Assembly (NCBI RefSeq): GCF_947489715.1
Contig: NZ_CANLER010000003.1
Coordinates: 186,001-250,000, forward strand
Length of the DNA stretch: 64,000 nucleotides
Direction of reading: 5' to 3'
From: an uncultured Roseovarius sp.
GTDB taxonomy: Bacteria; Pseudomonadota; Alphaproteobacteria; Rhodobacterales; Rhodobacteraceae
Below the pieces are notes generated by a model, which had not been told where the DNA came from, ran no database searches, and saw only the letters and a list, made by a program, of their open reading frames with translations. The position numbers and the translations under genes are program-made. Shown here piece by piece: positions 26,700 through 48,482 of the stretch (the first letter of the stretch is position 1; the number at the start of each line of letters is the position of its first letter).

Positions 26700-27209
26700 C
26701 TATTTGCGTTCCAGCAGAAAGAAGAACGGGCACGCGTCAACCCGGAGATCCATCAGACCCATCAGGCGCTGATCATCGACCCGGCGGAAATGATCTATGA
26801 TCGCCTTCTGGTCATAGATCATCGCGGCGGAGCTGACGCCCTCATACGTAACCATACGCAACCGCGCCTTCGGCTTTCCGGTCCTGAAAAGCGGGCAGAT
26901 CAGATAGAAAATCTGGCGCATGAACGGCCAATGGGCAAGGTTCAGCGCCCGCATCAGCGACAAGGACATCAGGCCGGGGTTGAGGCTGATCTGGCCCATG
27001 ATGCTGCGATGAATAAGCGGGTGCACCTCCTCGGCACTGTCAAAGCGTTTTCCGACCCAGCCCGAGACCTCAAGCAGCGCATCCAGCGGGTGCCCGGTCG
27101 CAATCCCGCTGCCAGACCAGCCGCCAAGCAGATCCGCCACCTCGACCGGCGGCAGCGACGCGAAAAGCGCCGCGACCTCATCGTTTGGCATCTGCTTTGG
27201 AATATCCAT
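26700..27209 (-). CDS. GXWXG / DUF4334 domain protein
   Basis: A 169-residue protein. The N-terminal GXWXG domain (LLGGWSGSGIATGHPLDALL) and C-terminal DUF4334 domain (RMVTYEGVSSAAMIYDQKAIIDHFRRVD, then LMGLMDLR) are recognisable; the biochemical function of the family is unknown. It ends 6 bases from the convergent cueR stop and is the last gene of the 27-37 kb operon, about 40 bases after the flavoprotein. The start is uncertain (27209, with 27191 as alternative); no strong ribosome site is seen. Its membership of the operon is inferred from strand and spacing. Confidence 0.7.
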   Translation of the reverse strand: MDIPKQMPNDEVAALFASLPPVEVADLLGGWSGSGIATGHPLDALLEVSGWVGKRFDSAEEVHPLIHRSIMGQISLNPGLMSLSLMRALNLAHWPFMRQIFYLICPLFRTGKPKARLRMVTYEGVSSAAMIYDQKAIIDHFRRVDDQRLMGLMDLRVDACPFFFLLERK

Positions 27210-27251
27210 CCAGGCCACGTTAGGCAGGCAAAGCCGTGGCGTCAAACGCCG

Positions 27252-28583
27252 TCAGATTTCGCGGCCCGCCTTGTACTCGCCCCACCGCAGCACGGCCCTG
27301 GCGCCAAGGGTTGCGAAGGGTTCGGGCGGCAGGCGCGAGGGCAGTGGTTGGTCCAGCACCTGATCCAGCAGATCCGATCCGACACCCGAGGCCAGATCGG
27401 CCATCAGCATCCCGTGCAGCGTACCCTTGGCCACGCCCAGCCCGTTCTGACAGCAGGCGGAATAAAGCCCCTCGTCCACCTCGCCCAAGGCAGGCGCGCC
27501 ATTGCGGCTGAGGCACAGCCGCCCGCCCCAGCGATATTCCATCTCAACCCCTTTGAGCATCGGAAACCGCGCGGCAAACCCCTTGTCGTGATCGCACGCC
27601 ATGCGGGCCAGTTTACCCTCGCTGATCTGCATCGACGGGTCATAGCTGAACCGGTTGCGCACGATGATCCGGTCGCCGCCGGTGCCGGAAATCCGCCGCA
27701 CGGTCGAGCCCATTGGATCGGCAGGTGTCAGCCCCCATCGGCGATCACCGCCTAGCGTTTTGATTTCATCCGGTGTCAGCGCGCGGGTCATCGAGCCGTA
27801 AAGGTGGATATGCATCAACCGGCCCCTGAAATGGCCGAAGCTGTTGGCGTGGCCATTCACTCCCAGAATGACCTTGGGCGCGGTAACGGACCCGTTCGGC
27901 GTTTGCGCTGTCCAGTCACGATCCCGCTGCAACCGGATCACCGGGGCGTTTTCATAAAGGCTGACCCGGTTCGACCTCAGCCCCTTTGCCATGCTGCGGA
28001 CGAACAGGGCAGGCTGCACCAGCCCGGCCCCCGGCGTGACAAGACCGCTTTGATAGTAGGACGTGCCGGTGATCTGGTGCATCTGCGCGGCATCCAGCAT
28101 CTCGTGCGGCTCGTTCATATTCGTCAGATGCTGCGCGTATTCCAGGTTATGGGCATGGCCGTGATCCGAGGCGGCGGCGTTGATCTTGCCGGGGCGATCA
28201 AACGCCTCTTTGCTCAGGCCGAACTCTGTCGCCATCTGCGCCGTAAAGTCGATGGCCGCGCGGTTGGCGGCAGCATCCTTGCGGTCACGTTCCATCTGGC
28301 CGCCATAGCCCTCGGATGTCAGGTGATGCGGCAGGTCGATCATGAAGCCAGTATTGCGCCCGGCGGGGCCTTCGCCGATGCGTTTCGCCTCCAGCAGCAC
28401 GATGCGGGCATCCGGGTGCAGGATCGACAGACGGCGCACGGCGGCAAGCCCGGCAAAACCGCCGCCAATCACCAGCCAGTCGGCGGTGATATGATCGCTA
28501 AGCTCATCCGGTGCATCCGGCGCGGGCAGGATGGCGTTCCAGCCCGAGATGCCGGTGTCGACAGGCAGGCGTCTGATTTTCAT
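27252..28583 (-). CDS. DAO-family FAD-dependent oxidoreductase
   Basis: A 443-residue D-amino-acid oxidase/PuuB-like flavoprotein with the dinucleotide motif DWLVIGGGFAGLAAVRRL, the GRNTGFM segment typical of gamma-glutamylputrescine oxidase relatives, and the C-terminal SACCQNGLGVAKGTLHG segment. It oxidises a secondary or primary amine C-N bond. In its operon it could be the D-hydroxyproline dehydrogenase step or an N-demethylase. It starts 4 bases inside the upstream SDR gene (ATGA overlap). Confidence 0.82.
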   Translation of the reverse strand: MKIRRLPVDTGISGWNAILPAPDAPDELSDHITADWLVIGGGFAGLAAVRRLSILHPDARIVLLEAKRIGEGPAGRNTGFMIDLPHHLTSEGYGGQMERDRKDAAANRAAIDFTAQMATEFGLSKEAFDRPGKINAAASDHGHAHNLEYAQHLTNMNEPHEMLDAAQMHQITGTSYYQSGLVTPGAGLVQPALFVRSMAKGLRSNRVSLYENAPVIRLQRDRDWTAQTPNGSVTAPKVILGVNGHANSFGHFRGRLMHIHLYGSMTRALTPDEIKTLGGDRRWGLTPADPMGSTVRRISGTGGDRIIVRNRFSYDPSMQISEGKLARMACDHDKGFAARFPMLKGVEMEYRWGGRLCLSRNGAPALGEVDEGLYSACCQNGLGVAKGTLHGMLMADLASGVGSDLLDQVLDQPLPSRLPPEPFATLGARAVLRWGEYKAGREI

Positions 28584-29311
28584 GGCAGGCTCAATTGTGC
28601 GGTGCGGCCACCGTCGATGGTATAGACCTGCCCGGTGACAAAACTTGCCTCATCCGAGGCCAGCCAGCAGATCAGCTGCGCCACTTCCGCGGGCGTGCCG
28701 GTCCGGCGCACCGGATGAATACCGCCGATCTGTGCACGGAACGCCTCCGGATCGCCCAGGCTTTCGATGAAATCCACGTTGAGCGGCGTGTCGATCCAAC
28801 CCGGTGCAACAGCGTTGCAGCGCACCCCATCGGGACCATGATCGACAGCCACCGCGCGGGACAGCCCGTGCAGCCCCGCCTTTGAGGCACAATAGGCCGG
28901 GTGGCGCGGGTTCGATCCCAGCCCTTCGATCGAACCGACATTGACGATGGCTCCGCTGTTCTGCTTCAGCAATGGCATGGCGTGGCGCGTCAGCAGGAAC
29001 GGCGCGGTCAGGTTGACCTGTAGTTGCAGGTGCCAGTCGGCCTCAGAAGTTTCTTCGACCGTGCCTTCGCGCATGACGCCGGCATTGTTGATCAGGATAT
29101 CAAGCTGCCCGGCGGTCTGCGCAATGTGGTCGATCACCTGTGCCGGTGCCGTTGGGTCGGCGAAATCGGCGGCGATAGCTTCGTGATCCGCCGCGCCACG
29201 TTGCGCAGTAAAGACCCGTGCGCCCTGCTCTGCCAGTAGCCGCGCCGTGGCCTGCCCCATACCGCTGGAGGCGCCGGTAACCAGGGCGGTTTTGTTTGCA
29301 AACCGTCCCAT
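28580..29311 (-). CDS. Short-chain dehydrogenase/reductase (SDR 1 of the operon)
   Basis: A 243-residue classical SDR: TGASSGMGQATA (cofactor glycines), NNAGVM, the catalytic Ser in VNVGSIEG, YCASK (Tyr/Lys pair), and the C-terminal TGQVYTIDGG. The FTAQR segment after the second strand lacks the acidic residue typical of NAD-specific enzymes, so NADP may be preferred. The substrate is unknown. The ATG at 29311 shares one base with the previous stop (TGATG); a GTG at 29314 is an alternative. Confidence 0.85.
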   Translation of the reverse strand: MGRFANKTALVTGASSGMGQATARLLAEQGARVFTAQRGAADHEAIAADFADPTAPAQVIDHIAQTAGQLDILINNAGVMREGTVEETSEADWHLQLQVNLTAPFLLTRHAMPLLKQNSGAIVNVGSIEGLGSNPRHPAYCASKAGLHGLSRAVAVDHGPDGVRCNAVAPGWIDTPLNVDFIESLGDPEAFRAQIGGIHPVRRTGTPAEVAQLICWLASDEASFVTGQVYTIDGGRTAQLSLP

Positions 29312-30039
29312 CACGCCACCGGTTTCGCGCCGTTGACCTCGACCAGCGCGCCGCAGACATAGCGCGCCGCATCCGAGGCCAGGAAGGTGATCACGTCGAC
29401 GATGTCCTGCGGTTCAGCGATCCGGCCCAGGGGCACGCTGGCATTCAGGTCATCGACCGCCTTGTCGGGATCGAGCCCGCGAATGGCAAAGCCGGTGCGC
29501 AGCATGGGTGTGTTGACCTCATTCGGGCAGACGGCGTTGACGCGGATGCCCTGTGGCGCGTGATCGCGGGCGAGGCATTGGGTAAGCGAGGCGATCGCCG
29601 CCTTGGACATGATGTAAAGCGGATGGTTGGGGCCGGGGCTGAGGCCCCAGCAGGATGCGGTGTTGACGATGGTGCCGCCTTTGTGCGCCATGATCGGGAT
29701 GGCCGCGCGGCACAGCCGGAAAGGCGCTTCGACATTCACGCCCATGGTCAGGGCGTAATCGGCATCGGTGGCCTGGGTGATGTCACCCCGGGTGATGACA
29801 CCCGCGTTGTTGCAGAGGATATCAAGGCTGCCAAGCGCTTCGGTCACCTGCCCCGGCAGCGCATCGCAAAAGGCCTTGTCCAGCAGATCGCCATCGAAAT
29901 GCGCGTCAGCCTCGATCCCGGATGTATCGCGGTCCGTTACCGCCACCCGCGCGCCCTCGGCCCTGAGCGTGGCAACAAGCGCCTTGCCGATACCGCCGGC
30001 GGCACCGGTAACCAGTGCGGTTTTGCCTTGGAACCTCAT
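29311..30039 (-). CDS. Short-chain dehydrogenase/reductase (SDR 2 of the operon)
   Basis: A 242-residue classical SDR: TGAAGGIGKAL, VTDRD at the end of strand 2 (Asp suggests NAD preference), NNAGVI, VNTASCWGL (catalytic Ser), YIMSK, and VCGALVEVNGAKP at the C-terminus. It is paralogous to the next gene but differs in cofactor loop, so the pair may do opposite or successive alcohol/ketone steps. It overlaps the P450 gene by 4 bases. Confidence 0.85.
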   Translation of the reverse strand: MRFQGKTALVTGAAGGIGKALVATLRAEGARVAVTDRDTSGIEADAHFDGDLLDKAFCDALPGQVTEALGSLDILCNNAGVITRGDITQATDADYALTMGVNVEAPFRLCRAAIPIMAHKGGTIVNTASCWGLSPGPNHPLYIMSKAAIASLTQCLARDHAPQGIRVNAVCPNEVNTPMLRTGFAIRGLDPDKAVDDLNASVPLGRIAEPQDIVDVITFLASDAARYVCGALVEVNGAKPVA

Positions 30040-31226
30040 GGGCTTACCTCATATCTGATAGGGAGTTTGATCGCCCCGGTATTGCCACTGTCGGGCATCC
30101 AGTCGGGCGTGCCGTCATAGGCGATTGTGGCGAAAGTCTCGCGCAGGGCGGTCAGCGCCGCGGCCATGTCGGTGCGGGCCACGAAATGCCCGATGCAGTG
30201 ATGCGCCCCACCGCCAAAACCGAAATGTTGTTTACGCGGCAGGGTGATGTCGAAAGTCGGATTATCGCAGATCTCGGGATCGCGCGCCGAGGCGTGAACC
30301 AGCAGATGCAGGACAGTGCCCCTGGCAATGGTGCGGCCATTCATCTCGATCTGCTCGGTGGCCTCGCGCGTGGCCCAGGTGGTTGTCGGACGGGCACGGA
30401 TGAATTCCTCGACAGCCGCCGGGATCAGCGACGCATCGGCGCGCAACGCCTGCCATTGCACGGGGTGCTCGATGAAAAGCGACAGGCCAAGCCCAAGCAA
30501 TGCGCGGGTAGTATCAACCCCGCCGAAGATCGAGATGACGATGGTGTTGAGCAATTCTTCGTGGCTGCAATCGCCGTTGCGGTCGAATTCCGCCACCATC
30601 CGGGCGACGTAGCTGTCGGTGTCGCGCCCCTGCCGCACCCGGACCACCAGCCGCGCGGCCAGATCGAACAGGCGTTCACAGGCGGCATTGCAACGGCTCT
30701 CGTAGTGTTTGGCGGTGATGCCCATCGCCAGTCCCAGCTCCGAGGCATCATGGGCGACGCCCGGCCATTCATCCGGCGAAAGGTCCAGCAACGTGGCGAT
30801 GACCTGTCCGGTGAACGGATCGCTGAAGGCCGATTGAAATTCCGCGTGGTCGGTCTGGCGTAGCCCGGCACAGAGATCACGCGCTATGCGCAGGAAGGTG
30901 GGCGCCAATCCCGTCACATAATCCTCGCTCAGCGCGGGCACGGCGAGGGCGCGCATGCGCTGATGCGCCGGGCCTTCCTGGCCGATGACCGATTGCCGCC
31001 AGAAATCGGCGAACCTGCCGCTGATCCCCACCGTGTCGGGCCAGTTGTGACTGCCCTGCCGGAATCGTTTGTCGCGCAGGATTTTACCAACTTCACGGTA
31101 GCGCAGTACGGCCAGGCCATAGGGTGTCTCGGCACACCAATCCGCGTCGCGCGCGGCCAGAACTTGCGCCCCCCGGGTTGAAAACCCCGGATCGGCAAGG
31201 TCCAGATATGCCAGCGTGCCCGCCAT
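30036..31226 (-). CDS. Cytochrome P450
   Basis: A 396-residue soluble bacterial P450. I-helix oxygen motif GGVDTTRALL, K-helix ExxR as EEFIR, and heme-ligand loop FGGGAHHCIG with the axial cysteine. No ferredoxin or reductase gene is adjacent, so electrons must come from elsewhere. In this operon it could hydroxylate the ring or remove an N-methyl group by oxidation. Only 3 bases separate it from the epimerase gene. Confidence 0.9.
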   Translation of the reverse strand: MAGTLAYLDLADPGFSTRGAQVLAARDADWCAETPYGLAVLRYREVGKILRDKRFRQGSHNWPDTVGISGRFADFWRQSVIGQEGPAHQRMRALAVPALSEDYVTGLAPTFLRIARDLCAGLRQTDHAEFQSAFSDPFTGQVIATLLDLSPDEWPGVAHDASELGLAMGITAKHYESRCNAACERLFDLAARLVVRVRQGRDTDSYVARMVAEFDRNGDCSHEELLNTIVISIFGGVDTTRALLGLGLSLFIEHPVQWQALRADASLIPAAVEEFIRARPTTTWATREATEQIEMNGRTIARGTVLHLLVHASARDPEICDNPTFDITLPRKQHFGFGGGAHHCIGHFVARTDMAAALTALRETFATIAYDGTPDWMPDSGNTGAIKLPIRYEVSP

Positions 31227-31229
31227 CGC

Positions 31230-32336
31230 CTAGCCCCCGAAAGACGCGACAGGTGGGCCAAACTGCGTGGCATCGGGCACAACCCCAAGGCCGGGTCCCT
31301 GCGGCAAGGCGATATGGCCGCCCTTGATCGCGATGCCGTTTTCCGGGTCGTAATTGCCCTCGATATAGGGTGCTGCAAGCCAGACACCTTCCAGCAGGCG
31401 CGGGTTCACCGTGGCCCCGATATGGGTGCAGGCAGCGGCGATGATGTCCCCGCCCCAGCTATCATCGCAGGTATGCGGCAGGCTTCGGGCCTCGCAGATA
31501 TCGCGGAACGCCGCCATGCGGTGCAGCCCGCCGATCCGTGTAAGCTTCATGCCGAACCCGTCAACCAGCCCGGTGCCTGCGGCGCTGATGACCGTGCCCA
31601 GATCGACGGCGTTTTCGTCCATATAGATCGCGTGGCTGACCTGCGTGCGGATCTGGCGCAACTCATCGACGGTATTGCAGGGCTGTTCCATGATGAAGGG
31701 AATATCCGGGCATTCGCGACTGACGCGCAGCGCATCCCTTGTGGTCCAGCCACGGTTACCATCGACCGCGAGGCGTGCCTTGCCACCGATGGTTTCCCAG
31801 ACCTTGCGGATAACGGCGATATCCACTTCTACCGGGCGGCCGCCGACCTTGATTTGCAGGCGCGGATAACCTTCGGCGACTTTCTCGACGGCCAGCCGGG
31901 CGATCTCGTCGGGTTCGCCCACCCCAGTGGCGTAGTAGGAGGGCACACGTTCGGTCGCCACCCCGCCCAGCAGATCCGCGACACGCAGGCCGGTTGCCTT
32001 GCCGATCAGATCATGGGCGGCAATATCAATCGCCGCCTTGGCATAGTTGTGCCCGTTCAAAAGCCCGTTCATCACCCGGTGCAGGGTCAGCGGCGCAACC
32101 TCGGCCCCGATCAGTCCGGGCGCCATTTCCATCAGCGCCGCGCGCGCCCCTTTGGCATGCGCCTCGGCATAGGTGGGGCCGACCGGGCAGGTTTCACCCC
32201 AGCCTTCCAGACCGGTATCCGAGACCAGCCGCACCAGCGTCGTATCCAGCGCCCAAACCTGCGCGTTGGCCATGGTATATGGGCCATTCCTGACCGGCAG
32301 GTCGTGCTGGAAGATATGAACCTCGGAGATACGCAT
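31230..32336 (-). CDS. hpbD: Enolase-superfamily epimerase, 4-hydroxyproline betaine 2-epimerase (HpbD)-like
   Basis: A 368-residue member of the MLE subgroup. The second-strand lysine lies in LQIKVGG, metal ligands in AVDGNRG, MEQP and YMDENA, and the opposite catalytic lysine in GMKLTRIGG. Two lysines facing each other are the 1,1-proton-transfer (epimerase/racemase) arrangement, not the His-Asp dyad of sugar-acid dehydratases. [28 protein letters not shown] and CDDSWGGDI match my recollection of HpbD and the related cis-3-hydroxyproline dehydratases. The assignment is from memory of motifs. The ATG overlaps the MttB stop (TGATG). Confidence 0.68.
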
Positions 32337-33886
32337 CAATGATCCTGATTGAGCGCGTCTGCCGCCGGAATTTCGCGTTCGCGGCGGGCGATGTAATCCA
32401 ATAGGGCTTCGTTCACGCCTGCGTCCAGCTTGGGTTCTTCGTAGCTGCCCAGCAAATCGCGGGTGTAATTGAGCGCGCGTTCATTGATCTCGACACCGCC
32501 CTCGGCCTGCCATTGCTCGATCGAGTTATTGTCGAAAAGCTCTGGCATGAAAAACGCGCGCTGGAAGTTCTCCAGCGTGTGCGGATGGCCCAGGTAATGC
32601 CCGCCGGGGCCGATATCGCCGACCGCCGCCAAGGCCTCGTCAAAGTCATCCCAGCGGATACCCTCGGCCATGCGGTAGGCCATGGCGCATTGTTCAGCAT
32701 CGACCACGAATTTCGCCATTGAACAATGCATCCCGGCCTCGTTCCAGCCAGCGGAATGCCACATGTAATTGGTGCCCGCCATTTGCAGGGCCATCAGGGT
32801 CGTGGCGCTTTCGTATCCGGCCTGCGCGTCAAAGGTCTTGGCGCCGCCCAGCGTGTTCGAGGACCGCCACGGCACGCCATAGAACCGCGCCATCTGGCCG
32901 ATCATCAGGTTCATCAGTGATATTTCGGGCGTGCCCGCCATCGGCGCACCGGATTTCATGCTGACAGTGCTCAGGTAATGGCCATAGATCGCCGGGCAGC
33001 CCTTGCGCACGACCTGCGTATAGGCCAGCGCGCTCAGCGCCTCGGCATTCAGTTGCGCCACGGTGGGCGCGACCGAGGCGGGCGTGTTGGCCCCACCCAG
33101 CACGAAGGGCGAGCAGAGCACCGGCTGGTTGCGCTTGCAGAAAGCCCGCATCGCCCCCAGCATGGTTTCATCCCAGACCAGCGGCGAGTTGCCGTTGCAA
33201 TTGCCGGTACAGACCGGATGGGTTTCCAGATACGCCTCGCCAAAGAGAATGGCGCACATCTCCATCACATCCTCGGCATTCTTCGGGCTGGTGGTCATGC
33301 CCATGAAGGTCTTGTCGGAATGCTTCATCGACGAATAGGTGATGCGCAGATGCCGCTGGCTGATCGGATGATCGTAAGGCTCGACAATGTGATGTGCCGA
33401 GCTGTGCAGCGCGGGCAACATATGCGCAAGCTTGTGGAAGTTCGCCAGGTCTTCCATCGTCGGGTTGCGGCGCACGTCATCCAAATCGCGCAGAAAAGGC
33501 GCGCCGGTCATCGGCACGAAAATCCCGTGGTCGCGACCGAAAGGCAGGTTATTGGCCGGGTTGCGGGCGTGATAGGTAAAGGTTTCGGGGATCGTTGCAA
33601 TCAGGCCGCGCACCAATCCCCGATCCAGGAAAACCGTTTCGCCAACGATCTTGGCACCCGCTTTGCGCCAATCCTCCAACGCGATGTCATCGCGGAAATG
33701 TACACCGACATTTTCCAGGATATGCATGCTGGCCGCGTCGATCCGGTCGATCTGTTCGGCATCCATCGGCTCGGTCAATGGCAGGTTGCGTTTAAGCGCG
33801 GGCAACATGGTGAAATCCCGCGTCTGCCGTGCCGATTTGCGTGCCCCGCGTCCGCGACGGACAGTGCCTACTGCATCAACGCTCAT
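32336..33886 (-). CDS. MttB-superfamily (trimethylamine methyltransferase-like) protein, no pyrrolysine
   Basis: A 516-residue TIM-barrel corrinoid methyltransferase homologue. Recognisable parts are [22 protein letters not shown], the GAPF segment, the [24 protein letters not shown] region and [19 protein letters not shown]. The frame has no internal amber codon, so it belongs to the non-pyrrolysine branch, whose studied members (MtgB, MtpB) demethylate glycine betaine or proline betaine. It should move a methyl group from a quaternary amine to a corrinoid protein. No corrinoid protein or reactivase is in the window. It overlaps both neighbours by 1-4 bases. Confidence 0.87.
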
Positions 33887-35373
33887 CCAACGTTGTCCCC
33901 TTCGGATGGATCGCTGAGGTCGATCCAGATTGTCTTGAGTTGGGTGAACTGGTCATGGGCGTGGGCCGAATTGTCGCGCCCGCCAAACCCCGATTGCTTG
34001 AAGCCGCCAAAAGGCGTGCTGATGTCACCTTCGCCATAACAGTTGACCGTCACCGTCCCCGCCTTGATCTCGCGCGCCGCGCGGATGGCTTGCCGTGTGT
34101 TGGCGGTGAACACGCTAGCCGCGAGGCCGTAGGAGGTGTCATTGGCAAGCTGGATCGCTTCCTCGGTGCTGGCAACCTCGATCACGCTCAGGATGGGGCC
34201 AAAGATTTCCTCACGCGCCTTCTTGTCCGCCGGTTTGACCGCATAGATCGTGGGCGGCACGAAATTGCCCTCGGCCTTGCCGCCGACCAGCGCCTTGCCT
34301 TTCAGGTATGTGCCGACCTTCTTGCAGTGGTCCGCGTCGATCAGCGCGCCCAGATGGTTGGCCGGGTCCAGCGGATCGCCGGTTTTCCAGTCGCGGGTGC
34401 GGGCGATGATCCGCTCCATCAGCGGCTCCCTGACCGATTTATGCACGATCAGTCGCGACGCGGCTGAGCAGTTTTCGCCCATGTTCCAGAAGGCGGCATT
34501 GACCACATGGGCCGCCACATGATCAAGGTTTTCGGCATCTTCCAGAACAACAGCGGGGTTCTTGCCACCGCATTCCAGCGTGATTTCCTTCATGTTGCTG
34601 TCGGCGGCATAGCGCAGGAACCGCTTGCCGGTCTCGGTCGAACCGGTGAAGCTGACCATGTCGACATCCATATGCATCCCCAGCGGCTCTCCCACCGACG
34701 GGCCATCGCCGGGCAGCACCTGCAACACGCCGCGCGGCACGCCCGCCATATGGGCAATCTCGGCCAGCCGCAGCGCCGTCAGGCTGGTCTGTTCCGCCGG
34801 TTTCACGATGACCGAGTTGCCAGCCGCCAGCGCCGGGCCGATCTTCCACGCCATCATCAACAGCGGGAAGTTCCACGGCAGCACCACGCCCACGACGCCG
34901 ATGGGTTCACGCACGATCATGCTGATCGCGTCATCGCCCGACGGGCCAGTCTGGTCATAGATCTTGTCGATCAGCTCGGCATGCCATTTGATCGTGTGGA
35001 TCACCTCGGGGATGTCGATGGTTTCGCAATCAAGAATGGGCTTGCCGCTGTCGAGGCTTTCCATCACCGCCAACTCGCGACGCCGACGGGTGATCAGTTT
35101 GCACATGCGGATCAGCACATCCTTGCGCTCAGACGGGTGCAGCCGCGACCAGTGCCCCTGATCGAAAGCTTCGCGGGCCTTCTTGACCGCAAAATCAACA
35201 TCCTTGGCATTGGCGGTGCTGATCTTTGTCAACACATCGCCGGTCGCCGGGTTGATCGTGTCCATCATCGGGCCAGCGCCTTTGCGGAACTTGCCGTCGA
35301 TGAAGGGGGTCGCGGGCAGGTCGATCTCGGCGGCGATGGCACCGTATTCGTCGCTGGTCAGAAGGTCAGTCAT
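33883..35373 (-). CDS. NAD(P)-dependent aldehyde dehydrogenase (PuuC/KGSADH-like)
   Basis: A 496-residue ALDH. Catalytic Glu in TLECGGKNP, nucleophilic Cys in MGENCSAASR, GSTETGKRF cofactor loop, and the C-terminal STPFGGFKQSGFGGRD...FTQLKTIWIDL, which resembles PuuC (gamma-glutamyl-aminobutyraldehyde dehydrogenase). Beside the DHDPS-family enzyme, 2-oxoglutarate semialdehyde is a good candidate substrate, but an aminoaldehyde from amine oxidation is possible. It overlaps the DHDPS gene and the mttB-like gene by 4 bases each. Confidence 0.86.
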   Translation of the reverse strand: MTDLLTSDEYGAIAAEIDLPATPFIDGKFRKGAGPMMDTINPATGDVLTKISTANAKDVDFAVKKAREAFDQGHWSRLHPSERKDVLIRMCKLITRRRRELAVMESLDSGKPILDCETIDIPEVIHTIKWHAELIDKIYDQTGPSGDDAISMIVREPIGVVGVVLPWNFPLLMMAWKIGPALAAGNSVIVKPAEQTSLTALRLAEIAHMAGVPRGVLQVLPGDGPSVGEPLGMHMDVDMVSFTGSTETGKRFLRYAADSNMKEITLECGGKNPAVVLEDAENLDHVAAHVVNAAFWNMGENCSAASRLIVHKSVREPLMERIIARTRDWKTGDPLDPANHLGALIDADHCKKVGTYLKGKALVGGKAEGNFVPPTIYAVKPADKKAREEIFGPILSVIEVASTEEAIQLANDTSYGLAASVFTANTRQAIRAAREIKAGTVTVNCYGEGDISTPFGGFKQSGFGGRDNSAHAHDQFTQLKTIWIDLSDPSEGDNVG

Positions 35374-36278
35374 TTGGCCTCTCCTGTGATGTTGGCGACG
35401 CTGGTGTTCATCGTGCGGATGACTTCCTCAAGCGCGCGTTTGTCGTCTTTGTTCAGCGGGTGCAAAGGCTTGCGCGGCGGCCCGCCGGGGATGCCCCGCA
35501 TCGTCAGCCCATGCTTGATGCACTGAACGAATTTGCCGCCCTGTTCCAGCACGCGCATCAGTGGCAACATCGCCGACATGATCGCACGACCCTTGGTAAA
35601 ATCCCCCTCGATCACACATGCCTGATAAAGCGCGATATGCGCCTCGGGCGCGAAATTCGATCCGGCGCAGACCCAGCTGCGCGCGCCCCAGGCGAAGAAT
35701 TCCAGGGCCTGGTCGTCCATCCCGCAGCTCAGTGCGATATGCGGGTAATCCCGCGCCAGCATATGCAAACGGTTGATATCCCCGGAACTTTCCTTGATCG
35801 CGCAGAAATTCGGTGAGCGCCCCAGACGGTCGAGCGTTTCTTCGTCCATGTTCACGCCCATCCGCCCCGGATAGTTATAGAGCATCACCGGCATGTTGGC
35901 GGCACGATCGACAGCAAGGCAGTGCAACGCCACTTCGCGGCCCGTGGGACAGGAATAGGGGGGCGTGGCAATCAAAAGGGCATCTGCCCCGACTTTCCTG
36001 GCCGCCTTGGCATATTCGATGCTGTTTTCGGTGCGGATGTCACCGGTGCCCACAATCATCGGCACGCGGCCTTTGATCAGCTTATGAACGCGCTGCATCA
36101 TCCACACGCGCTCCTCGAAGGTCTGCGCGTAATATTCGCCGGTGGTGCCCGCGACGATGATGCCATGCACACCGGCACCGATCAGCAGGTCGACCGTGTC
36201 GGCAAGCGCCTTTTCGTTGACGCTGAAATCATCATGATAGGGCGTCACGATGGGCGTGTAGATGCCTTCAAAGCGCAT
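35370..36278 (-). CDS. DHDPS/NAL-family lyase (HypD-like candidate)
   Basis: A 302-residue class I aldolase-fold enzyme. Schiff-base lysine at about residue 162 (FCAIKESSGD), proton-relay Tyr at about 134 (LYNYPGRMG), substrate carboxylate loop GTTGEYY. Family members that yield 2-oxoglutarate semialdehyde include delta1-pyrroline-4-hydroxy-2-carboxylate deaminase and sugar-acid dehydratases. With an HpbD-like epimerase and an ALDH in the same operon, the hydroxyproline deaminase reading fits best. It overlaps the GntR gene by 11 bases and the ALDH by 4. Confidence 0.82.
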   Translation of the reverse strand: MRFEGIYTPIVTPYHDDFSVNEKALADTVDLLIGAGVHGIIVAGTTGEYYAQTFEERVWMMQRVHKLIKGRVPMIVGTGDIRTENSIEYAKAARKVGADALLIATPPYSCPTGREVALHCLAVDRAANMPVMLYNYPGRMGVNMDEETLDRLGRSPNFCAIKESSGDINRLHMLARDYPHIALSCGMDDQALEFFAWGARSWVCAGSNFAPEAHIALYQACVIEGDFTKGRAIMSAMLPLMRVLEQGGKFVQCIKHGLTMRGIPGGPPRKPLHPLNKDDKRALEEVIRTMNTSVANITGEAK

Positions 36279-36972
36279 GTTTATGGTCCTTCATTGCAAT
36301 CACGTCCAGCGGCAGCGGATCAGGAGAGACAAAGCGCTCCAACCGGTCACGGGACAGGTTCCAGTGGTCGATGGTCAGGTCGACGATGACCGCCGGTTCC
36401 TGACGTTCGATGGCGACGATCATGGCGTCGTGGTGGTCAATGGCGCGGGTCACCCGGTTCTGGTCATCATCCGAAGTGGGGCGATAGAATGTCTGGCTAA
36501 GCCGCGTGTGGTCGATCAGCATCCGGCCCAGGCTGGCGCGCAGGTAGGGGTTGTGGGACATGACTCCGATCTGCTCATGAAACGCATGGTTCAGCAGCGC
36601 CGATTGCCCGGTGTCACCGGCCAGAACGGCAGCGCGAAATTCTTTCTGAATGGCCTTGAGCGGCGGGATTTCATCCGAGCGGCGATTCTCGGCTGCCAGA
36701 CGTGCAACATTGGCATAGATCATCGGGGCGGTCTGAAAGAACATGCGCATCACCCCCAGGTCCATCGAGGCCACCTTGGCCCCGCGATTCTGTTCGATCC
36801 GCAGATAACCTGCGCCGCTAAGTCTTTGAAAAACCTCGCGCATTGGCGTGCGTGAGATACCGTATTGATCGCAGAGCGATGCTTCGTCCAGATCGCTGCC
36901 GGGCGCAATATCCAGCATCAGGATACGCATGCACAGGTCTTCGAGACAGGCAGTTTTCTTGTCCTTGGTCAT
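36268..36972 (-). CDS. GntR-family regulator, FCD (FadR) subfamily
   Basis: A 234-residue regulator. N-terminal winged HTH (IAPGSDLDEASLCDQYGISRTPMREVFQRLSGAGYL), C-terminal all-helical FCD ligand domain with metal-binding residues (NHAFHEQIGV, DHHDAMIVAI). It is the first gene of the operon and very probably controls it, with a pathway intermediate as ligand. Start: of two adjacent ATGs (36975, 36972), the second has better spacing from GGGAGGG. A palindrome that could be its operator lies just upstream. Confidence 0.88.
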   Translation of the reverse strand: MTKDKKTACLEDLCMRILMLDIAPGSDLDEASLCDQYGISRTPMREVFQRLSGAGYLRIEQNRGAKVASMDLGVMRMFFQTAPMIYANVARLAAENRRSDEIPPLKAIQKEFRAAVLAGDTGQSALLNHAFHEQIGVMSHNPYLRASLGRMLIDHTRLSQTFYRPTSDDDQNRVTRAIDHHDAMIVAIERQEPAVIVDLTIDHWNLSRDRLERFVSPDPLPLDVIAMKDHKHAL

Positions 36973-36987
36973 CATCCCTCCCTACTT

Positions 36988-39181: not shown

Positions 39182-40546
39182 TTACAGGTGGTGATAATCT
39201 TCGACGCCGACCGTGTGGCTGGTGCCCGCAAGGGGAACACCCGCCATCGCCGAGGCTTCCATCGTGAGTGCGGCGAGATCCTCGGGCTCCAACGAGTGGA
39301 GATAGGTCTTGCCGCAGGCACGGGCAAAAAGCTGTGCCTCGATGGTGAGCGTGTGCAGGAAGTTATACACACGTTCCGCCGCCGCATCCGGGTCGAGACG
39401 CTTGCGCAGTTCCGGGTCTTGCGTGGCCACGCCAACCGGGCAACGGCCCGTGTGACAGTGATAGCAATAGCCGGGCTCTGCCAGGATCTCTTCCTGATAG
39501 TTGGCTTCGGGGATGTCCTTGTTGCAGTTCAGCGCCATCATCACCGAGTGGCCGATCGCAATCGCGTCTGCACCCAGGGCAATCGCCTTGGCCACGTCGG
39601 CACCGTTCCGGATACCGCCCGCATAGACCAGGCTGATTTCGCCACGCTTGCCAAGATCGTCAATCGCCTTGCGCGCCTGACGGATCGCGGCCATGCCCGG
39701 TACACCGGTATCTTCGGTCGCAAGGTGCGGACCAGCACCGGTGCCGCCTTCCATGCCGTCGATATAGATGCTGTCCGGGTCACATTTCACCGCCATCCGA
39801 ACGTCGTCATAGACACGGCTTGCGCCCAGCTTCAGCTGGATCGGGATCTGCCAGTCCGTCGCTTCACGGATTTCCTGGATTTTCAGCGCCAGATCGTCCG
39901 GTCCCAGCCAGTCGGGGTGACGGGCAGGTGAACGCTGGTCGATACCGGCAGGAAGTGACCGCATCTCGGCAACCTGGTCGGTCACTTTCTGACCCATCAG
40001 GTGACCGCCAAGGCCAACTTTACAGCCCTGACCGATGAAGAACTCGCATCCATCCGCCAGGATCAGGTGGTTCGGGTTGAAGCCATAGCGCGACTGAATG
40101 CACTGGTAGAACCACTTGGAGCTATAGCGACGCTCATCCGGGATCATGCCGCCCTCGCCCGAGCACGTCGCCGTACCGGCCATGGTCGCACCACGCGCCA
40201 GCGCGGTTTTCGCCTCATAGGACAGCGCCCCGAAAGACATGCCTGTCACATAGACCGGGATATCCAGTACCAGCGGGTTCTTGGCGCGCGGGCCAATCAC
40301 CGTTTGGGTCTCGCATTTCTCGCGGTAGCCTTCGATCACGAAACGCGTCAGCGTGCCGGGCAGGAAGGTCAGGTCATCCCAGTGCGGGATTTTCTTGAAC
40401 AGAGAGAACCCCCGCATCCGGTAGCGGCCAAGTTCGGACTTGATGTGGATGTCATCCATCACCGCAGGCGGGAAGATGAAGCTGTCACCGATACGGTTGG
40501 TATCGCGCGCCAGCGGTTTTTTCTTGGGCAGATCGCCGTCAGCCAT
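39182..40546 (-). CDS. mgsC: N-methylglutamate synthase subunit C (FMN glutamate-synthase domain)
   Basis: A 454-residue homologue of the FMN/Fe-S synthase domain of GltB. MSFGALSYEAKTALARGA starts the FMN barrel, IDGMEGGTGAGPHLATEDTG is the 2-oxoglutarate/FMN loop, and CYHCHTGRCPVGVATQ supplies the cluster cysteines. With MgsA and MgsB it transfers methylamine released from gamma-glutamylmethylamide to 2-oxoglutarate. I chose 40546 (AAAGGAA 7 bases upstream) over a longer frame with a non-family N-terminus. Order gmaS-mgsA-mgsB-mgsC supports the call over ordinary glutamate synthase. Confidence 0.88.
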   Translation of the reverse strand: MADGDLPKKKPLARDTNRIGDSFIFPPAVMDDIHIKSELGRYRMRGFSLFKKIPHWDDLTFLPGTLTRFVIEGYREKCETQTVIGPRAKNPLVLDIPVYVTGMSFGALSYEAKTALARGATMAGTATCSGEGGMIPDERRYSSKWFYQCIQSRYGFNPNHLILADGCEFFIGQGCKVGLGGHLMGQKVTDQVAEMRSLPAGIDQRSPARHPDWLGPDDLALKIQEIREATDWQIPIQLKLGASRVYDDVRMAVKCDPDSIYIDGMEGGTGAGPHLATEDTGVPGMAAIRQARKAIDDLGKRGEISLVYAGGIRNGADVAKAIALGADAIAIGHSVMMALNCNKDIPEANYQEEILAEPGYCYHCHTGRCPVGVATQDPELRKRLDPDAAAERVYNFLHTLTIEAQLFARACGKTYLHSLEPEDLAALTMEASAMAGVPLAGTSHTVGVEDYHHL

Positions 40547-40568
40547 TGTTTTATTCCTTTCGCTAGCT

Positions 40569-41438
40569 TTAGAGAATGAGCTTCTTCTCGTTGGGTTCCA
40601 GGTTGTCGTAATTCCAGAGCATTTTGCCCGCGACGACCTTGGTGAAATGATCAACGCCCTTGTCCGGCATCATCCCGTACTGCGTCAGCTTGCGCGTCAG
40701 CCAGGCCTTGTCGAGATCGGTCAGTTCCGCCTCGACCGCGTCCACACCATAGGATTTGGTTTCGCCACCGACAAAGATCGTGCCGTCATACATACTGTCG
40801 CCCAGGTTCTTGCCCGCATTGCCACAGATGATCATCCGCCCACGCTGCATCATGAAGCCCGTCAGCGCGCCGACATCACCACCAACGATGATCGTGCCGC
40901 CCTTCTGGTCGATGCCCGTCCGCGAACCTACCGAGCCACGGCACACCAGATCGCCACCGCGCATCGCGGCGCCAAAGGTGGAACCGGCGTTTTTCTCAAC
41001 CAGCACGGTGCCCGACATCATGTTCTCGCCGCAGGACCAGCCCACGCGACCCGTGATGCGCACATTCGGCCCGTCGATCAGACCCACGCCGAAATATCCG
41101 GTCGAGCCTTCGATGATCAGGTTGAGCTTGCTCAGGATGCCCACGCCAAGCGAGTGCTTGCCGCGCGGGTTTTGCAGAACGATGGTACCGTAGCCTTCGG
41201 CCATTTTGGCGCGAATGGCCTGGTTGACCTCGGTATTGGTCATATCGTCAGTGTCAATCTCGGTACGCTTGTTGAAATCGACATCCGGCGCCCAAGGGTA
41301 GGTAAACCGCTCTTCGGCATCGGGGTCAAACTCGACATAAAGCGATTTGCCCGTCAGCTGTTCGGTGCGCATGCCCAGGGCGGTCACCCGCTCTTCCTGG
41401 GTCATGTTCTTGAGTTCTGCGTCGCTTACGCTTGCCAT
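40569..41438 (-). CDS. mgsB: N-methylglutamate synthase subunit B (GXGXG domain)
   Basis: A 289-residue right-handed beta-helix protein corresponding to the C-terminal GXGXG domain of glutamate synthase. Repeated turns are evident: GSTGYFGVGLIDGPNVRITGRVGWSCGENMMSGTV, then GGDLVCRGSVGSRTGIDQKGGTIIVGGDVGALTG. It is a structural subunit of the synthase. It overlaps the mgsA stop by 13 bases, so the two are translationally coupled. Confidence 0.88.
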   Translation of the reverse strand: MASVSDAELKNMTQEERVTALGMRTEQLTGKSLYVEFDPDAEERFTYPWAPDVDFNKRTEIDTDDMTNTEVNQAIRAKMAEGYGTIVLQNPRGKHSLGVGILSKLNLIIEGSTGYFGVGLIDGPNVRITGRVGWSCGENMMSGTVLVEKNAGSTFGAAMRGGDLVCRGSVGSRTGIDQKGGTIIVGGDVGALTGFMMQRGRMIICGNAGKNLGDSMYDGTIFVGGETKSYGVDAVEAELTDLDKAWLTRKLTQYGMMPDKGVDHFTKVVAGKMLWNYDNLEPNEKKLIL

Positions 41439-42361
41439 ACCCGGACCTCCTCGTCGTAGGGATCAGTTGTGTCGATTTCTTGCGGCAGGATTGCGCGGAT
41501 CGCCACCTCTTCCGAGGCCATCGCGATCAGGTCGTCCGATTCGTAGAGAACCAGCGGTTTGGCGGCCATCGTATCCTTGGCCATGCCCAGCTGATCCTTG
41601 GTCGCGACCAAATAGGTGAACACGCCATCGATCTCTTGGATGGACTGGCGCAGGCTGTCTTCTAGCGACACGCCATTGGCCAGGTTATGCGCAGTATAGA
41701 CCGCCAGCAGTTCGCTGTCGCAGTTCGACATGAACCGGTGGCCCTTGCGTTCCATCTCGCGGCGCATGATCCAGTAGTTGGTGATCTGGCCGTTATGGAC
41801 AACGCTGACATCATTATAGGGGAACGCCCAGTAGGGGTGCGCCGATTTGATGTCCACGTCGGATTCCGTTGCCATCCGGGTGTGACCGATGCCATGCGTG
41901 CCGTTGAAATCGTTCAGGCCATAAGCCTCGGCCACGACCGACGCATCGCCCAAGTCCTTGATCAACTCAAGACCGTTGCCCATCGACAGGATCTCGACAC
42001 CCTCGGTTTCCTCGATATGGCTCGCCATCTCGCCGGTGTCGCCACTATGGGTCAGCACGTAGCGCAGCGAATACTCGCGCGGAGCTTCTTTGGTCTTGAT
42101 CTTGGCACCATGCTCTTCGAGAATGGTTTCAACCTCGGTAATCCGGTCAGCGATGACCTGATGGATACCGCGACCGCGTTCCATATCCTCGGCTTCGGCC
42201 ACTTTGAGGCGCATCACATAATCGCCCTCAACGGGCTCGCCATAGACCGCGTAACCGGTACTGTCCGGTCCCCGGTGCTTGAGGGCCTGGAGCATGGCGG
42301 TCATTTCAAACCCGACATTGGCGCTCTTGCCCTTGTGTATCAATCCAGCAATTCCACACAT
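41426..42361 (-). CDS. mgsA: N-methylglutamate synthase subunit A (class II amidotransferase)
   Basis: A 311-residue Ntn hydrolase with nucleophile Cys2 (MCGIAGLIHKG), GIGHTRMATESDV and SVVHNGQITNYW, as in the glutaminase part of GltB but as a separate polypeptide. It releases methylamine (rather than ammonia) from gamma-glutamylmethylamide. AAGGAGG lies 9 bases upstream. It is separated from gmaS by an 83-base gap holding a terminator-like hairpin. Confidence 0.88.
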   Translation of the reverse strand: MCGIAGLIHKGKSANVGFEMTAMLQALKHRGPDSTGYAVYGEPVEGDYVMRLKVAEAEDMERGRGIHQVIADRITEVETILEEHGAKIKTKEAPREYSLRYVLTHSGDTGEMASHIEETEGVEILSMGNGLELIKDLGDASVVAEAYGLNDFNGTHGIGHTRMATESDVDIKSAHPYWAFPYNDVSVVHNGQITNYWIMRREMERKGHRFMSNCDSELLAVYTAHNLANGVSLEDSLRQSIQEIDGVFTYLVATKDQLGMAKDTMAAKPLVLYESDDLIAMASEEVAIRAILPQEIDTTDPYDEEVRVWQA

Positions 42362-42394
42362 CTGGATATGCCTCCTTAGGTTGGCTAGGAAAAT

Positions 42395-42436
42395 TCAGAA
42401 AAGGCGGCAGGCATAGGGCACCTGCCGCCAGTTTTT
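42395..42436 (-). terminator. Terminator-like hairpin between gmaS and mgsA
   Basis: On the minus strand GGCGGCAGG (42429-42421) pairs with CCTGCCGCC (42411-42403) around a 9-base loop, followed by TTTTC. The plus strand also has a T run beyond the stem. It could end part of the gmaS transcripts, so that gmaS is made in excess over mgsABC. Confidence 0.65.
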
Positions 42437-42444
42437 GGAATGCC

Positions 42445-43920
42445 TCAGGGAAGACATTCCATATACGTGTCGTTGTCCCAATCGGTGACGGTCGCCATGA
42501 AGCGGGCGTATTCGTCATATTTGTACTCATGGAACAGACGGTACATTTCACCTGGCAGACCGCGTTGGACCACCTCACTATTTTCAAGATGATCAAGGGC
42601 TTCACCCAGCGACATCGGCAGCTTCTTGACCTGCTTACCGGCCTTGATCGCCTCGTAGATGTTGCGCTCTTCGGGCTCACCCGGATCCAGCTTGTTGTCG
42701 ATGCCGTCATCCATGGCCGCCAGCAGGGTCGATCCCATCAGATACGGGTTCACCATGGAGTCGACCGAGCGGTATTCGAACCGTCCGGGGGCCGACACAC
42801 GCAGACCGGTTGTCCGGTTCTGGAAACCCCAGTCGGCAAAGATCGGCGCCCAGAAGCCCGTATCCCAAAGCCGGCGATAAGAGTTCACGGTCGAAGACCC
42901 GATCGCCGTCAGCGCCTGCAGGTGGTGGACCACGCCGCCGATCGCCTCAAGCCCTTCTTTGCCGGGCATCTGCGGATCGTCGTCGTCAGGCATAAAGGTG
43001 TTCTCACCACCACGCACATACATGTAGTTCTCGCGCATACCCGGCAGATCATCCGGATCATTGCCGCATTTGACGAATTCATCCTCACCACCGCGCCACA
43101 GGCTCATGTTGTGGTGACAGCCTGACGCCGACACACCCATGAACGGCTTGGTCATGAAGCAGGCAAAAATCCCTTCTTCACGCGCCACCTGGGCACAGAT
43201 CTGGCGATAGGTGGTCAGACGGTCCGCGTTGCGCAGAACATCGTCGAACATCCAGTTCAGTTCCAGCTGACCGGGGGCATCCTCGTGGTCGCCCTGGATC
43301 ATGTCCAGACCCATCTGGCGGGCATATTTGATCACCTTCATCGACACCGGACGCAAGGATTCAAACTGGTCGATGTGATAGCAGTAAGGCTTCGAATAGC
43401 CGTCCTTGGGCTTGCCGTTCTCGTCGAACTTCAGCCACATCATTTCCGGCTCCGTGCCGATCCGCAGCGACCGACCGTGCTTTTCCTTGAACTGGTCATG
43501 CATGCGGCGCAGGTTGCCGCGACCATCCGAGGTCAGATATCCACCCGGATTTTCCTTTTCCTCGCGGTTGCGGAAGAGCGTGCAGTAAAAACGACCGATT
43601 TGCGGCGCCCAGGGCAGCTGCATGAAGGTTTCAGGCTCGGGGATACCGACCAGTTCGGCGGCTTCCGGACCGTAGCCCAGATAGTTGCCGGCGCGGTCAG
43701 TGAACAGGTTCACCGTGGCGCCATAGACCAACTGGAAGCCCTTCTTGGCGATGGATTCCCAGTGATCGGCGGGAATACCTTTGCCCATGATCTTGCCGGT
43801 CACGGATACGAATTGCAGATAGAGATATTCGATGCCCTTGGCATCAATCATCTCTCGCACTTGTTTGATCTTTTCGGCGCGGCCGGGGGCTTCGACGAAT
43901 TTTTCGAGATCTGTTGCCAC
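42445..43920 (-). CDS. gmaS: Gamma-glutamylmethylamide synthetase (GlnA type III-like)
   Basis: A 491-residue glutamine-synthetase-fold enzyme that ligates methylamine to glutamate with ATP. Marks include FVSVTGKIMGKGIPADHW, GTEPEMMWLKF, QLELNW (metal Glu), GCHHNMSLW, and SVDSMVNPYLMGSTLLAAMDDGI. The context (mgsABC downstream, mgdABCD 3 kb away) separates it from ordinary glutamine synthetase. It starts with GTG after GGGAG. gmaS is the entry gene of the indirect methylamine pathway and the best marker of it. Confidence 0.88.
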   Translation of the reverse strand: MATDLEKFVEAPGRAEKIKQVREMIDAKGIEYLYLQFVSVTGKIMGKGIPADHWESIAKKGFQLVYGATVNLFTDRAGNYLGYGPEAAELVGIPEPETFMQLPWAPQIGRFYCTLFRNREEKENPGGYLTSDGRGNLRRMHDQFKEKHGRSLRIGTEPEMMWLKFDENGKPKDGYSKPYCYHIDQFESLRPVSMKVIKYARQMGLDMIQGDHEDAPGQLELNWMFDDVLRNADRLTTYRQICAQVAREEGIFACFMTKPFMGVSASGCHHNMSLWRGGEDEFVKCGNDPDDLPGMRENYMYVRGGENTFMPDDDDPQMPGKEGLEAIGGVVHHLQALTAIGSSTVNSYRRLWDTGFWAPIFADWGFQNRTTGLRVSAPGRFEYRSVDSMVNPYLMGSTLLAAMDDGIDNKLDPGEPEERNIYEAIKAGKQVKKLPMSLGEALDHLENSEVVQRGLPGEMYRLFHEYKYDEYARFMATVTDWDNDTYMECLP

Positions 43921-44434
43921 TGTTTTAGTCTCCCTGAGGTTGCCGCCTTGGCCGGGTCTTGTGCCCGGCTTCGGTGGGGTGGTTCAGCCCGGTCGTTTCG
44001 GGCCGTTCAAGACCGGGCTCACATCACCAAAGGCGGACCGGTCAAATTGAATTGGTTTAAGAAAGTGCGGGTGATTGGTCGGGGTCGCGTCAATATTGGC
44101 GGATTGCACGTGACGGGTGAAAACCTGGATGGAAAAGATCCGGGCAGCGCTGCGGCTATCTCTCGAAGATGCGCCAAGCTTCCATGCAACGAGCCCACGG
44201 TGTATACCGGTATCAGTGATCACGAAATCAGCTTGATCTCTAAGCGTCATCTGAACAGGCTCCCTGGGTCTTTGATAGGTGGCTTGATGTGCAAATCGAG
44301 GCGGTGCAGCAGTTGTTAACGAAATCCTTCCCTTTGCCAAGCCAAAAGTCAACCACTTTTGGTCCAATGATTGCAAAAAGGCCAATAAACGCCCTTAATT
44401 GGTATATATTTGGTTCATCTATAGGGTGCTGCAA
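43921..44434. promoter_or_regulatory. 514-base divergent control region, gmaS / GntR
   Basis: No supportable gene; the short frames in it lack family features and ribosome sites. It must hold the promoters of gmaS (leftward) and the GntR gene (rightward). The rightward end is AT-rich with TTGGTATATATTTGG (44399-44413), about 20 bases before the GntR start, which could be its promoter and half-operator. The length leaves room for a long gmaS leader. Confidence 0.45.
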
Positions 44435-45124: not shown

Positions 45125-45150
45125 GGCACGGAATCTGCGACCCCGCGTAG

Positions 45151-45170
45151 CTTGGGTGAAACCCACGCAC
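45151..45170. repeat. Small intergenic palindrome after the GntR gene
   Basis: TGGGT (45153-45157) pairs with ACCCA (45161-45165) around GAA, inside CTTGGGTGAAACCCACG. It lacks a T run. It resembles the other GGGTGAACCC-type hairpin at 39126, so it may be a short relative of that intergenic repeat. Confidence 0.4.
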
Positions 45171-45241
45171 CGCGCCCCGTTCGGCCCCCCGCTCCCGCTG
45201 GAACACCGCGCGCCCTGTTAACCACGCCCGCGCCGGTATCA

Positions 45242-45285
45242 AATACCGACGTAATACCGACGTTTTACCGACACGATACAGACAG
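45242..45285. repeat. Four 11-bp tandem repeats (TACCGAC family), copy 2
   Basis: Consecutive 11-mers: AATACCGACGT, AATACCGACGT, TTTACCGACAC, GATACAGACAG. The first two are identical. The array matches the one at 22161-22204 in unit length, unit number and consensus but lies in the opposite orientation, here between the 3' ends of two convergent genes. Confidence 0.85.
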
Positions 45286-45390
45286 CGGTTTTCCCTTGTT
45301 AACCAGCCTCTTACGGGGTGATTCGCGGCCCCCGGCCCGGATCACCGCCCAGATCGTTTCTGATTTGACAGGATTTGGGGCGCTGGCGCT

Positions 45391-46113: not shown

Positions 46114-46170
46114 GGGGCCCTCCATTTTTCGCCGACCCTAAGCCGCAATCGGCGCGCGGCGCAAGTTCTG

Positions 46171-47127: not shown

Positions 47128-47216
47128 TTTAGAAATCTAACCGTCTATTTCAGAGAAGTCGATTCGGAAGTTAACGGCGATGCTATTCCGATTGGAGTTT
47201 CGGGGATCTGTCACCA

Positions 47217-48467: not shown

Positions 48468-48482
48468 TCGGAGGGACAGGAC

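What the first reader, a model, noticed from the sequence alone, without database searches (positions are those of the whole stretch)
26700..36972. Overlap-coupled operon joining MttB, an HpbD-like epimerase, a P450, HypD-like lyase and ALDH: possible new betaine catabolic route
Nine genes from the GntR regulator (36972) to the flavoprotein (27252) are linked by 1-11 base overlaps or a 3-base gap; the GXWXG/DUF4334 gene follows 42 bases later. The enzyme set can be read as one pathway: 2-epimerisation of a hydroxyproline-betaine-like compound (HpbD-like), demethylation (MttB, P450 or flavoprotein), oxidation of the free D-amino acid (DAO-like), deamination to 2-oxoglutarate semialdehyde (DHDPS family), and oxidation to 2-oxoglutarate (ALDH). 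The hydroxyproline-betaine pathways I know use Rieske demethylases, which are absent here, while MttB, a P450 and two SDRs are present. The combination is new to me. The substrate is inference.
Basis: partly seen in the sequence, partly recalled or inferred. Interest (0 to 1): 0.85.

Follow-up and report, generated by a model that had tools for sequence, protein, structure and literature searches.

The report
B12-type route for hydroxyproline betaine
This gene set, conserved in many marine bacteria, likely breaks down ring-shaped betaines related to proline, and its MttB-family methyltransferase, predicted to use vitamin B12, would do the first methyl removal that some relatives appear to leave to an unrelated oxygen-using enzyme.

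Summary
The nine-gene operon is real and conserved. Its MLE protein falls in the HpbD clade (73% identical to the Paracoccus denitrificans enzyme, both catalytic lysines kept). MttB, HpbD-like epimerase, two SDRs, DAO, ALDH, DHDPS-family protein and GntR recur together: 46 of 80 HpbD-anchored loci hold all, and so does Cereibacter sphaeroides 2.4.1 plasmid pB. Three Paracoccus loci carry the same module with a GbcA-like Rieske oxygenase, and their genomes have no MttB-family match: the best evidence that MttB does the Rieske enzyme's job. The P450 is a local part (3 of 80 loci, plus one further genome); in Roseovarius albus an HpbA-like flavoenzyme sits in its place. Among 20 loci drawn on MttB alone, only 3 have HpbD nearby, while 16-17 keep DAO, ALDH and DHDPS. 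Likely reading: a modular (hydroxy)proline-betaine pathway in which MttB replaces the Rieske demethylase. Substrate, order of reactions, cobalamin use and P450 role are inferred.

The parts
36268..36975 (-). GntR/FCD regulator, first gene of the operon
   Evidence: Pfam PF00392 and PF07729; ortholog at 40% identity or more in 50 of 80 related loci
35370..36278 (-). DHDPS-family protein; predicted to act on a pyrroline-hydroxy-carboxylate (HypD-like), untested
   Evidence: PF00701; in 50 of 80 HpbD-anchored and 16 of 20 MttB-anchored loci
33883..35373 (-). Aldehyde dehydrogenase; predicted to make 2-oxoglutarate, untested
   Evidence: PF00171; best NCBIfam model PuuC, under cut-off; in 54 of 80 and 17 of 20 loci
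32336..33886 (-). MttB-family methyltransferase without in-frame stop; predicted first N-demethylation
   Evidence: PF06253, 709 bits; 358 bits to a solved glycine betaine methyltransferase, 9YCE; no internal stop; ortholog in 95 of 394 family genomes
31230..32336 (-). HpbD-like enolase-superfamily epimerase
30036..31226 (-). Cytochrome P450, no reductase domain; likely removes the second N-methyl group (inferred)
   Evidence: PF00067; FGFGGGAHHCIG at residue 335 and GGVDTT at 235; same slot holds an HpbA-like OYE in L004
29311..30039 (-). SDR1; role at the ring hydroxyl is a guess
   Evidence: PF13561/PF00106; 370 bits to PDB 3UXY, next best 132; in 62 of 80 related loci
28580..29314 (-). SDR2; role at the ring hydroxyl is a guess
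   Evidence: PF13561/PF00106; in 63 of 80 related loci
27252..28583 (-). DAO-family FAD oxidoreductase; predicted to oxidise the demethylated ring amino acid

Best explanation
This operon likely encodes a pathway for (hydroxy)proline betaines in which the HpbD-like epimerase and the two SDRs would set the stereochemistry, MttB would remove the first N-methyl group, the P450 would likely remove the second, and the DAO, DHDPS-family and aldehyde dehydrogenase proteins would carry the ring to 2-oxoglutarate. Shown: the genes, their families, their joint conservation, the HpbD membership of the MLE protein by sequence and fold, and the exchange of MttB for a GbcA-like Rieske oxygenase in three Paracoccus loci. 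Inferred: the MttB methyl group goes to a corrinoid protein shared with methionine synthesis, as shown for glycine betaine in Ruegeria pomeroyi (PMC12478193); the genome has one B12-binding protein with both needed domains. Inferred too: the substrate, the order of steps, SDR action at the ring hydroxyl, and P450 demethylation. MttB-DAO-ALDH-DHDPS-GntR is the core; HpbD, the SDRs and the P450 are exchangeable front-end parts.
For: MLE is HpbD by sequence, tree, catalytic lysines and fold. All seven partner genes in 46 of 80 HpbD-anchored loci. Full set with betaine-type ABC genes on C. sphaeroides 2.4.1 plasmid pB and no Rieske gene among the 26 annotated features. Of 65 loci with both SDRs, 56 have MttB only, 3 the Rieske only, 1 both, 5 neither; the genomes of the 3 Rieske-only loci have no PF06253 match. 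HpbA-like OYE in the P450 slot of R. albus; the window's own genome has no OYE of that class (best 34%). A pyrroline-5-carboxylate reductase-like gene in or near the core in 6 of 20 MttB-anchored loci. One B12-binding and one pterin-binding candidate partner in the genome. Hydroxyproline betaine or betonicine occurs in marine organisms (passages).
Against: From the MttB side HpbD is near in only 3 of 20 loci. The Rieske-only loci all belong to one genus, and L071 has both enzymes. Three of five P450 genomes also hold an OYE at 46-49%, and three genomes without the P450 lack this OYE class, so neither second demethylase is a strict need. ALDH is far under the KGSA dehydrogenase cut-off. No corrinoid protein or P450 redox partner is in the operon. 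13 PF00848 Rieske matches elsewhere in the genome could include a demethylase. In the divergent operon of L130 the MLE has changed fast (50% identity).
Confidence: 0.55

Rival explanations
1. The MttB-DAO-ALDH-DHDPS-GntR core serves a different, non-proline quaternary amine; HpbD and the SDRs were added in some lineages for a second substrate that only shares the MttB step.
For: HpbD is near MttB in 3 of 20 MttB-anchored loci while DAO, ALDH and DHDPS stay in 16-17; a Yoonia plasmid has the core without HpbD; ALDH and DHDPS match no curated hydroxyproline model.
Against: From the HpbD side the core is the regular partner (46 of 80 loci with all parts); the core sits with HpbD and a Rieske betaine oxygenase in Paracoccus; a pyrroline-carboxylate reductase-like gene lies in some HpbD-less cores. 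HpbD elsewhere in the HpbD-less genomes was not looked for.
Confidence: 0.22
2. The substrate is plain proline betaine, and the P450 hydroxylates its ring rather than removing a methyl group, so that the product enters the hydroxyproline branch.
For: HpbD enzymes are said to act on proline betaine too (recalled); a passage of PMC11337228 says that proline betaine breakdown was worked out in P. denitrificans and R. sphaeroides; bacterial P450s often hydroxylate (recalled).
Against: The same module occurs without any P450 in most loci (P450 in 3 of 80); an HpbA-like demethylase, not a hydroxylase, fills the slot in R. albus.
Confidence: 0.13
3. MttB is not the demethylase of this pathway; a Rieske oxygenase encoded elsewhere does the step and MttB serves another amine from the same operon.
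For: 13 PF00848 Rieske matches and 13 MttB homologs in the genome; L071 has both enzymes in one locus.
Against: MttB overlaps ALDH by 4 bases and HpbD by 1; it is a line of its own (44% at best to the 11 of 12 paralogs compared); the Rieske-only versions of the module lack MttB genome-wide.
Confidence: 0.1

Closest known systems
Hpb pathway of Paracoccus denitrificans and Pelagibaca bermudensis (Zhao 2013, Kumar 2014; both recalled, papers not held)
   Same: HpbD epimerase of the same clade; betaine-type transport genes; in three Paracoccus loci the same SDR-DAO-ALDH module
   Different: MttB in place of the Rieske oxygenase, a P450 in place of HpbA, and two SDRs plus DHDPS and ALDH in one operon; the P. 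denitrificans-type loci L154-L158 have neither the SDR pair nor the DHDPS/ALDH module at the thresholds used
MtgBCD glycine betaine demethylation of Ruegeria pomeroyi (PMC12478193: abstract, passages, Discussion)
   Same: PF06253 methyltransferase in an aerobic roseobacter-type genome with a separate corrinoid and pterin protein
   Different: Other gene setting (epimerase, SDRs, P450, ring-degrading enzymes); the corrinoid link of this MttB is not shown and the proteins were not compared in sequence
MtpB proline betaine methyltransferase of Eubacterium limosum (told in passages of PMC8604678 and in PMC12478193)
   Same: MttB superfamily member acting on a proline-type betaine, sharing one corrinoid protein with its paralogs
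   Different: Anaerobic acetogen; sequence not compared; no epimerase or ring degradation mentioned in the passages seen
HpbA, N-methyl-L-proline N-demethylase (annotated in P. pantotrophus)
   Same: A 677-aa OYE at 47% identity holds the P450's slot in R. albus
   Different: The window has an unrelated P450 there and no OYE of this class in its genome (best 34%)

Membership tests
HpbD (4-hydroxyproline betaine 2-epimerase) | Sequence clade with the solved HpbD enzymes | tested here: met
   85-row clade at SH-aLRT 100 holding 2PMQ and 4E8G, quick tree; 73.2% and 63.4% identity
HpbD (4-hydroxyproline betaine 2-epimerase) | Catalytic lysines 163 and 265 (PMC4532418, passage) | tested here: met
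   K164 and K265 in the window protein
HpbD (4-hydroxyproline betaine 2-epimerase) | Epimerisation of hydroxyproline betaine | not testable with these tools
   Needs an enzyme assay
Hpb pathway | Rieske quaternary-amine demethylase in the cluster | tested here: not met
   No PF00848 match in the window; Rieske beside HpbD in L154-L158
Hpb pathway | HpbA-type OYE demethylase | tested here: not met
   Best OYE in the genome 34% to the L004 and L031 OYEs
Hydroxyproline branch (HypD, KGSA dehydrogenase) | Curated models for the two enzymes | tested here: inconclusive
   KGSA dehydrogenase model 325 of 770 bits; no HypD model among the DHDPS hits
Non-pyrrolysine MttB superfamily | Full-length PF06253 without in-frame amber | tested here: met
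   Residues 10-507 match profile 2-500; no internal stop
Non-pyrrolysine MttB superfamily | Separate corrinoid protein and methyl-acceptor enzyme | tested here: inconclusive
   Candidates with the right domains elsewhere in the genome; none in the operon; interaction untested
Cytochrome P450 | Heme cysteine motif and I-helix threonine motif (motifs recalled) | tested here: met
   FGFGGGAHHCIG at 335 and GGVDTT at 235

The most novel reading that the evidence does not exclude
A modular osmolyte pathway of aerobic marine bacteria in which both N-demethylations of cyclic betaines exist as interchangeable, unrelated enzymes: a cobalamin-linked MttB swaps with an oxygen-using Rieske enzyme for the first methyl, and a P450 swaps with a flavoenzyme (HpbA) for the second. 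The MttB version sends a methyl group of hydroxyproline betaine straight into the methionine and one-carbon pool without oxygen.
Probability: 0.42. Interest if true: 0.68.

Novelty: new variant of a known kind. Interest (0 to 1): 0.52.

Why it matters
PMC12478193 suggests that the extra PF06253 proteins of marine bacteria demethylate other compounds, without assigning them in the Discussion as read. This operon gives one of them a likely substrate class and a full pathway. It can be tested in Cereibacter sphaeroides 2.4.1, a laboratory strain that carries the module on plasmid pB. If true, B12 supply would bear on the use of proline-type osmolytes in the sea; an ortholog of this MttB is in 95 of 394 genomes of the family.

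Tried and rejected
The GXWXG/DUF4334 gene as an operon part: rejected, 0 of 80 loci. The P450 as a core part: rejected (3 of 80 loci; of 23 other family genomes with a P450 match at 1e-60, only G109 shows MLE and SDR hits in the short locus). P450-for-HpbA as a strict rule: not upheld. HpbD as a core part: rejected after the MttB-anchored sample. HypD or KGSA dehydrogenase by curated models: inconclusive; a plasmid search for named HypD relatives gave mostly generic names among the 40 of 1215 records listed. Solved-structure searches of the SDRs gave no substrate. Papers: no paper of the library holds both 'hydroxyproline betaine' and 'MttB' (ordered by terms held, first row has one); others (3 papers; 2 papers; 30 of 107 listed) showed none that assigns an MttB to this pathway, seen as listings. 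Zhao 2013, Kumar 2014 and the MtpB paper are not held, so a mention there is not excluded.
Full report
Observation. The window holds nine minus-strand genes from GntR (36975) to the DAO flavoprotein (27252), joined by overlaps of 1-11 bases and one 3-base gap. Pfam gives GntR/FCD, DHDPS, Aldedh, MTTB (709 bits), MR_MLE, p450, two SDRs and DAO. The window is G000:C3:186001-250000 of a 5.03-Mb genome. The best named match of its MLE protein is Roseovarius aestuarii (94%).

Conservation from the HpbD side. A scan of genome contigs with the MLE protein kept the best 80 of 213 relatives. Of the 80, 59 have MttB (74-96% identity), 62 SDR1, 63 SDR2, 55 DAO, 54 ALDH, 50 DHDPS, 50 GntR; 46 have all seven; 3 have the P450; none has DUF4334. 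Of these 46, six have the whole set on one strand as in the window (L001-L004, L048, L072) and 38 have MttB-MLE-SDR-SDR on one strand and the other four genes on the opposite one. AraC/DJ-1 regulators, BCCT and ProU-type transport genes lie beside many; by the three representatives used, 34 of 80 loci have such a transporter, 30 of them with MttB. Plasmid pB of C. sphaeroides 2.4.1 has the full set with glycine betaine/proline-type ABC genes and a GlxA-family regulator, and no Rieske gene among the 26 features annotated in 29 kb. A passage of the review PMC11337228 says that proline betaine breakdown was worked out in P. denitrificans and R. sphaeroides; it names no genes there.

MttB against Rieske. 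The genome whose HpbD is 100% identical to 4E8G (G422) has a Rieske oxygenase beside it and, at the thresholds used, no MttB, SDR pair or DHDPS/ALDH module in the 20 kb read. Its Rieske protein and those of L065 and L160 match NCBIfam's GbcA model at 486-511 bits, under the cut-off of 670. The annotated P. pantotrophus plasmid shows hpbD with hpbA, a Rieske gene, an NAD(P)-dependent oxidoreductase and ABC genes. Three Paracoccus loci (L065, L159, L160) combine HpbD, both SDRs, DAO and ALDH with that Rieske type; L159 and L160 also have DHDPS and GntR. Their genomes G394, G452 and G456 have no PF06253 match, nor do 9 others of the 15 HpbD-bearing genomes of that genus; 3 of the 15 have one or two. 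Over the 88 loci examined, 65 have both SDRs: 56 MttB only, 3 Rieske only, 1 both (L071), 5 neither, of which L038 and L051 begin close to the MLE gene. Fisher's p of 0.005 ignores kinship, and the three Rieske-only loci share one genus.

The second methyl group. A passage of PMC8604678 reports that MtyB had no detectable activity on the tertiary amine product of its quaternary substrate, though it had low activity on a secondary one; so a further demethylase is expected here, without proof. In R. albus (L004) a 677-aa OYE lies between MLE and SDR1, where the window has the P450. It is 47% identical to the protein annotated as HpbA in P. pantotrophus. In 28 genomes searched with an OYE of this class (L031), the window's own and G109, both with the P450 operon, reach only 34% and 33%; the genomes of L001-L003, also with the P450, have one at 46-49%; 4 of 4 with such an OYE in the locus and 16 of the other 19 have one at 47% or more; G531, G532 and G538 have none. 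The P450 may stand in for HpbA in two genomes; the rule is not strict. P450 relatives at 41-54% lie beside gmaS-like genes in 4 of 23 short loci, which fits small amines but proves nothing.

Methyl acceptor. The genome has 13 MttB homologs, one B12-binding_2 protein and two pterin-binding proteins; one candidate pair has PF02310+PF02607 and Pterin_bind/CdhD. PMC12478193 (abstract, passages and Discussion) reports that R. pomeroyi MtgC and MtgD serve both glycine betaine demethylation and methionine synthesis, and that up to seven PF06253 ORFs suggest further substrates. The link of this MttB to such a corrinoid protein is inferred.

Substrate in nature. Betonicine was isolated from a sea anemone and, as the (+) form, from a red alga (PMC10056678, passages); betonicine and proline betaine are listed among minor compatible solutes in Antarctic samples (PMC10579395, passage); hydroxyproline betaine was found in radiolarian holobionts (PMC11965087, passages). 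More than one stereoisomer would give the epimerase and the SDRs work to do; this is inference.

Verdict. As far as the searches show, it is a new variant of the Hpb pathway. The operon in the window is one assembly of a modular system: a conserved MttB-DAO-ALDH-DHDPS-GntR core, an HpbD-SDR-SDR front end, and a lineage-specific P450.

Noticed in passing
Window genome G000: 13 PF06253 (MttB) proteins with only one B12-binding_2 protein; PMC12478193 speaks of up to seven such ORFs.
   Followed up: partly
39182-52277: Next to the operon: glutamate-synthase-like, GXGXG, GATase and glutamine-synthetase-like genes, then DAO and sarcosine-oxidase-alpha-like genes; looks like an N-methylglutamate methylamine pathway (recalled).
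   Followed up: no
L130 10368-11474: In G109 the same P450 operon keeps its other parts at 69-85% identity, but the MLE is only 50% identical and has Arg where the window has Trp295; it may be losing or changing its function.
   Followed up: partly
L136-L139: Relatives of the P450 (41-54%) lie beside gmaS-like genes, up to 85% identical to the window's gmaS-like gene.
   Followed up: partly
26700-27245: GXWXG/DUF4334 gene follows the operon but is in 0 of 80 related loci.
   Followed up: yes
L003, L167, L171, L174: A pyrroline-5-carboxylate reductase-like gene stands between ALDH and MttB; the window lacks it.
   Followed up: yes
L080 7786-10004 and other HpbD loci: A zinc alcohol dehydrogenase and a second MLE protein form another recurring pair: 21 and 13 of 80 loci.
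   Followed up: no
L161 15116-15850: SDR1 of the C. sphaeroides cluster matches PDB 3UXY over its full length (519.7 bits over 244 residues): a solved SDR whose entry gives only the generic name.
   Followed up: no
L163: A Yoonia plasmid carries the MttB core with a BCCT gene and no HpbD, between transposase genes, its GntR annotated in two overlapping pieces.
   Followed up: no
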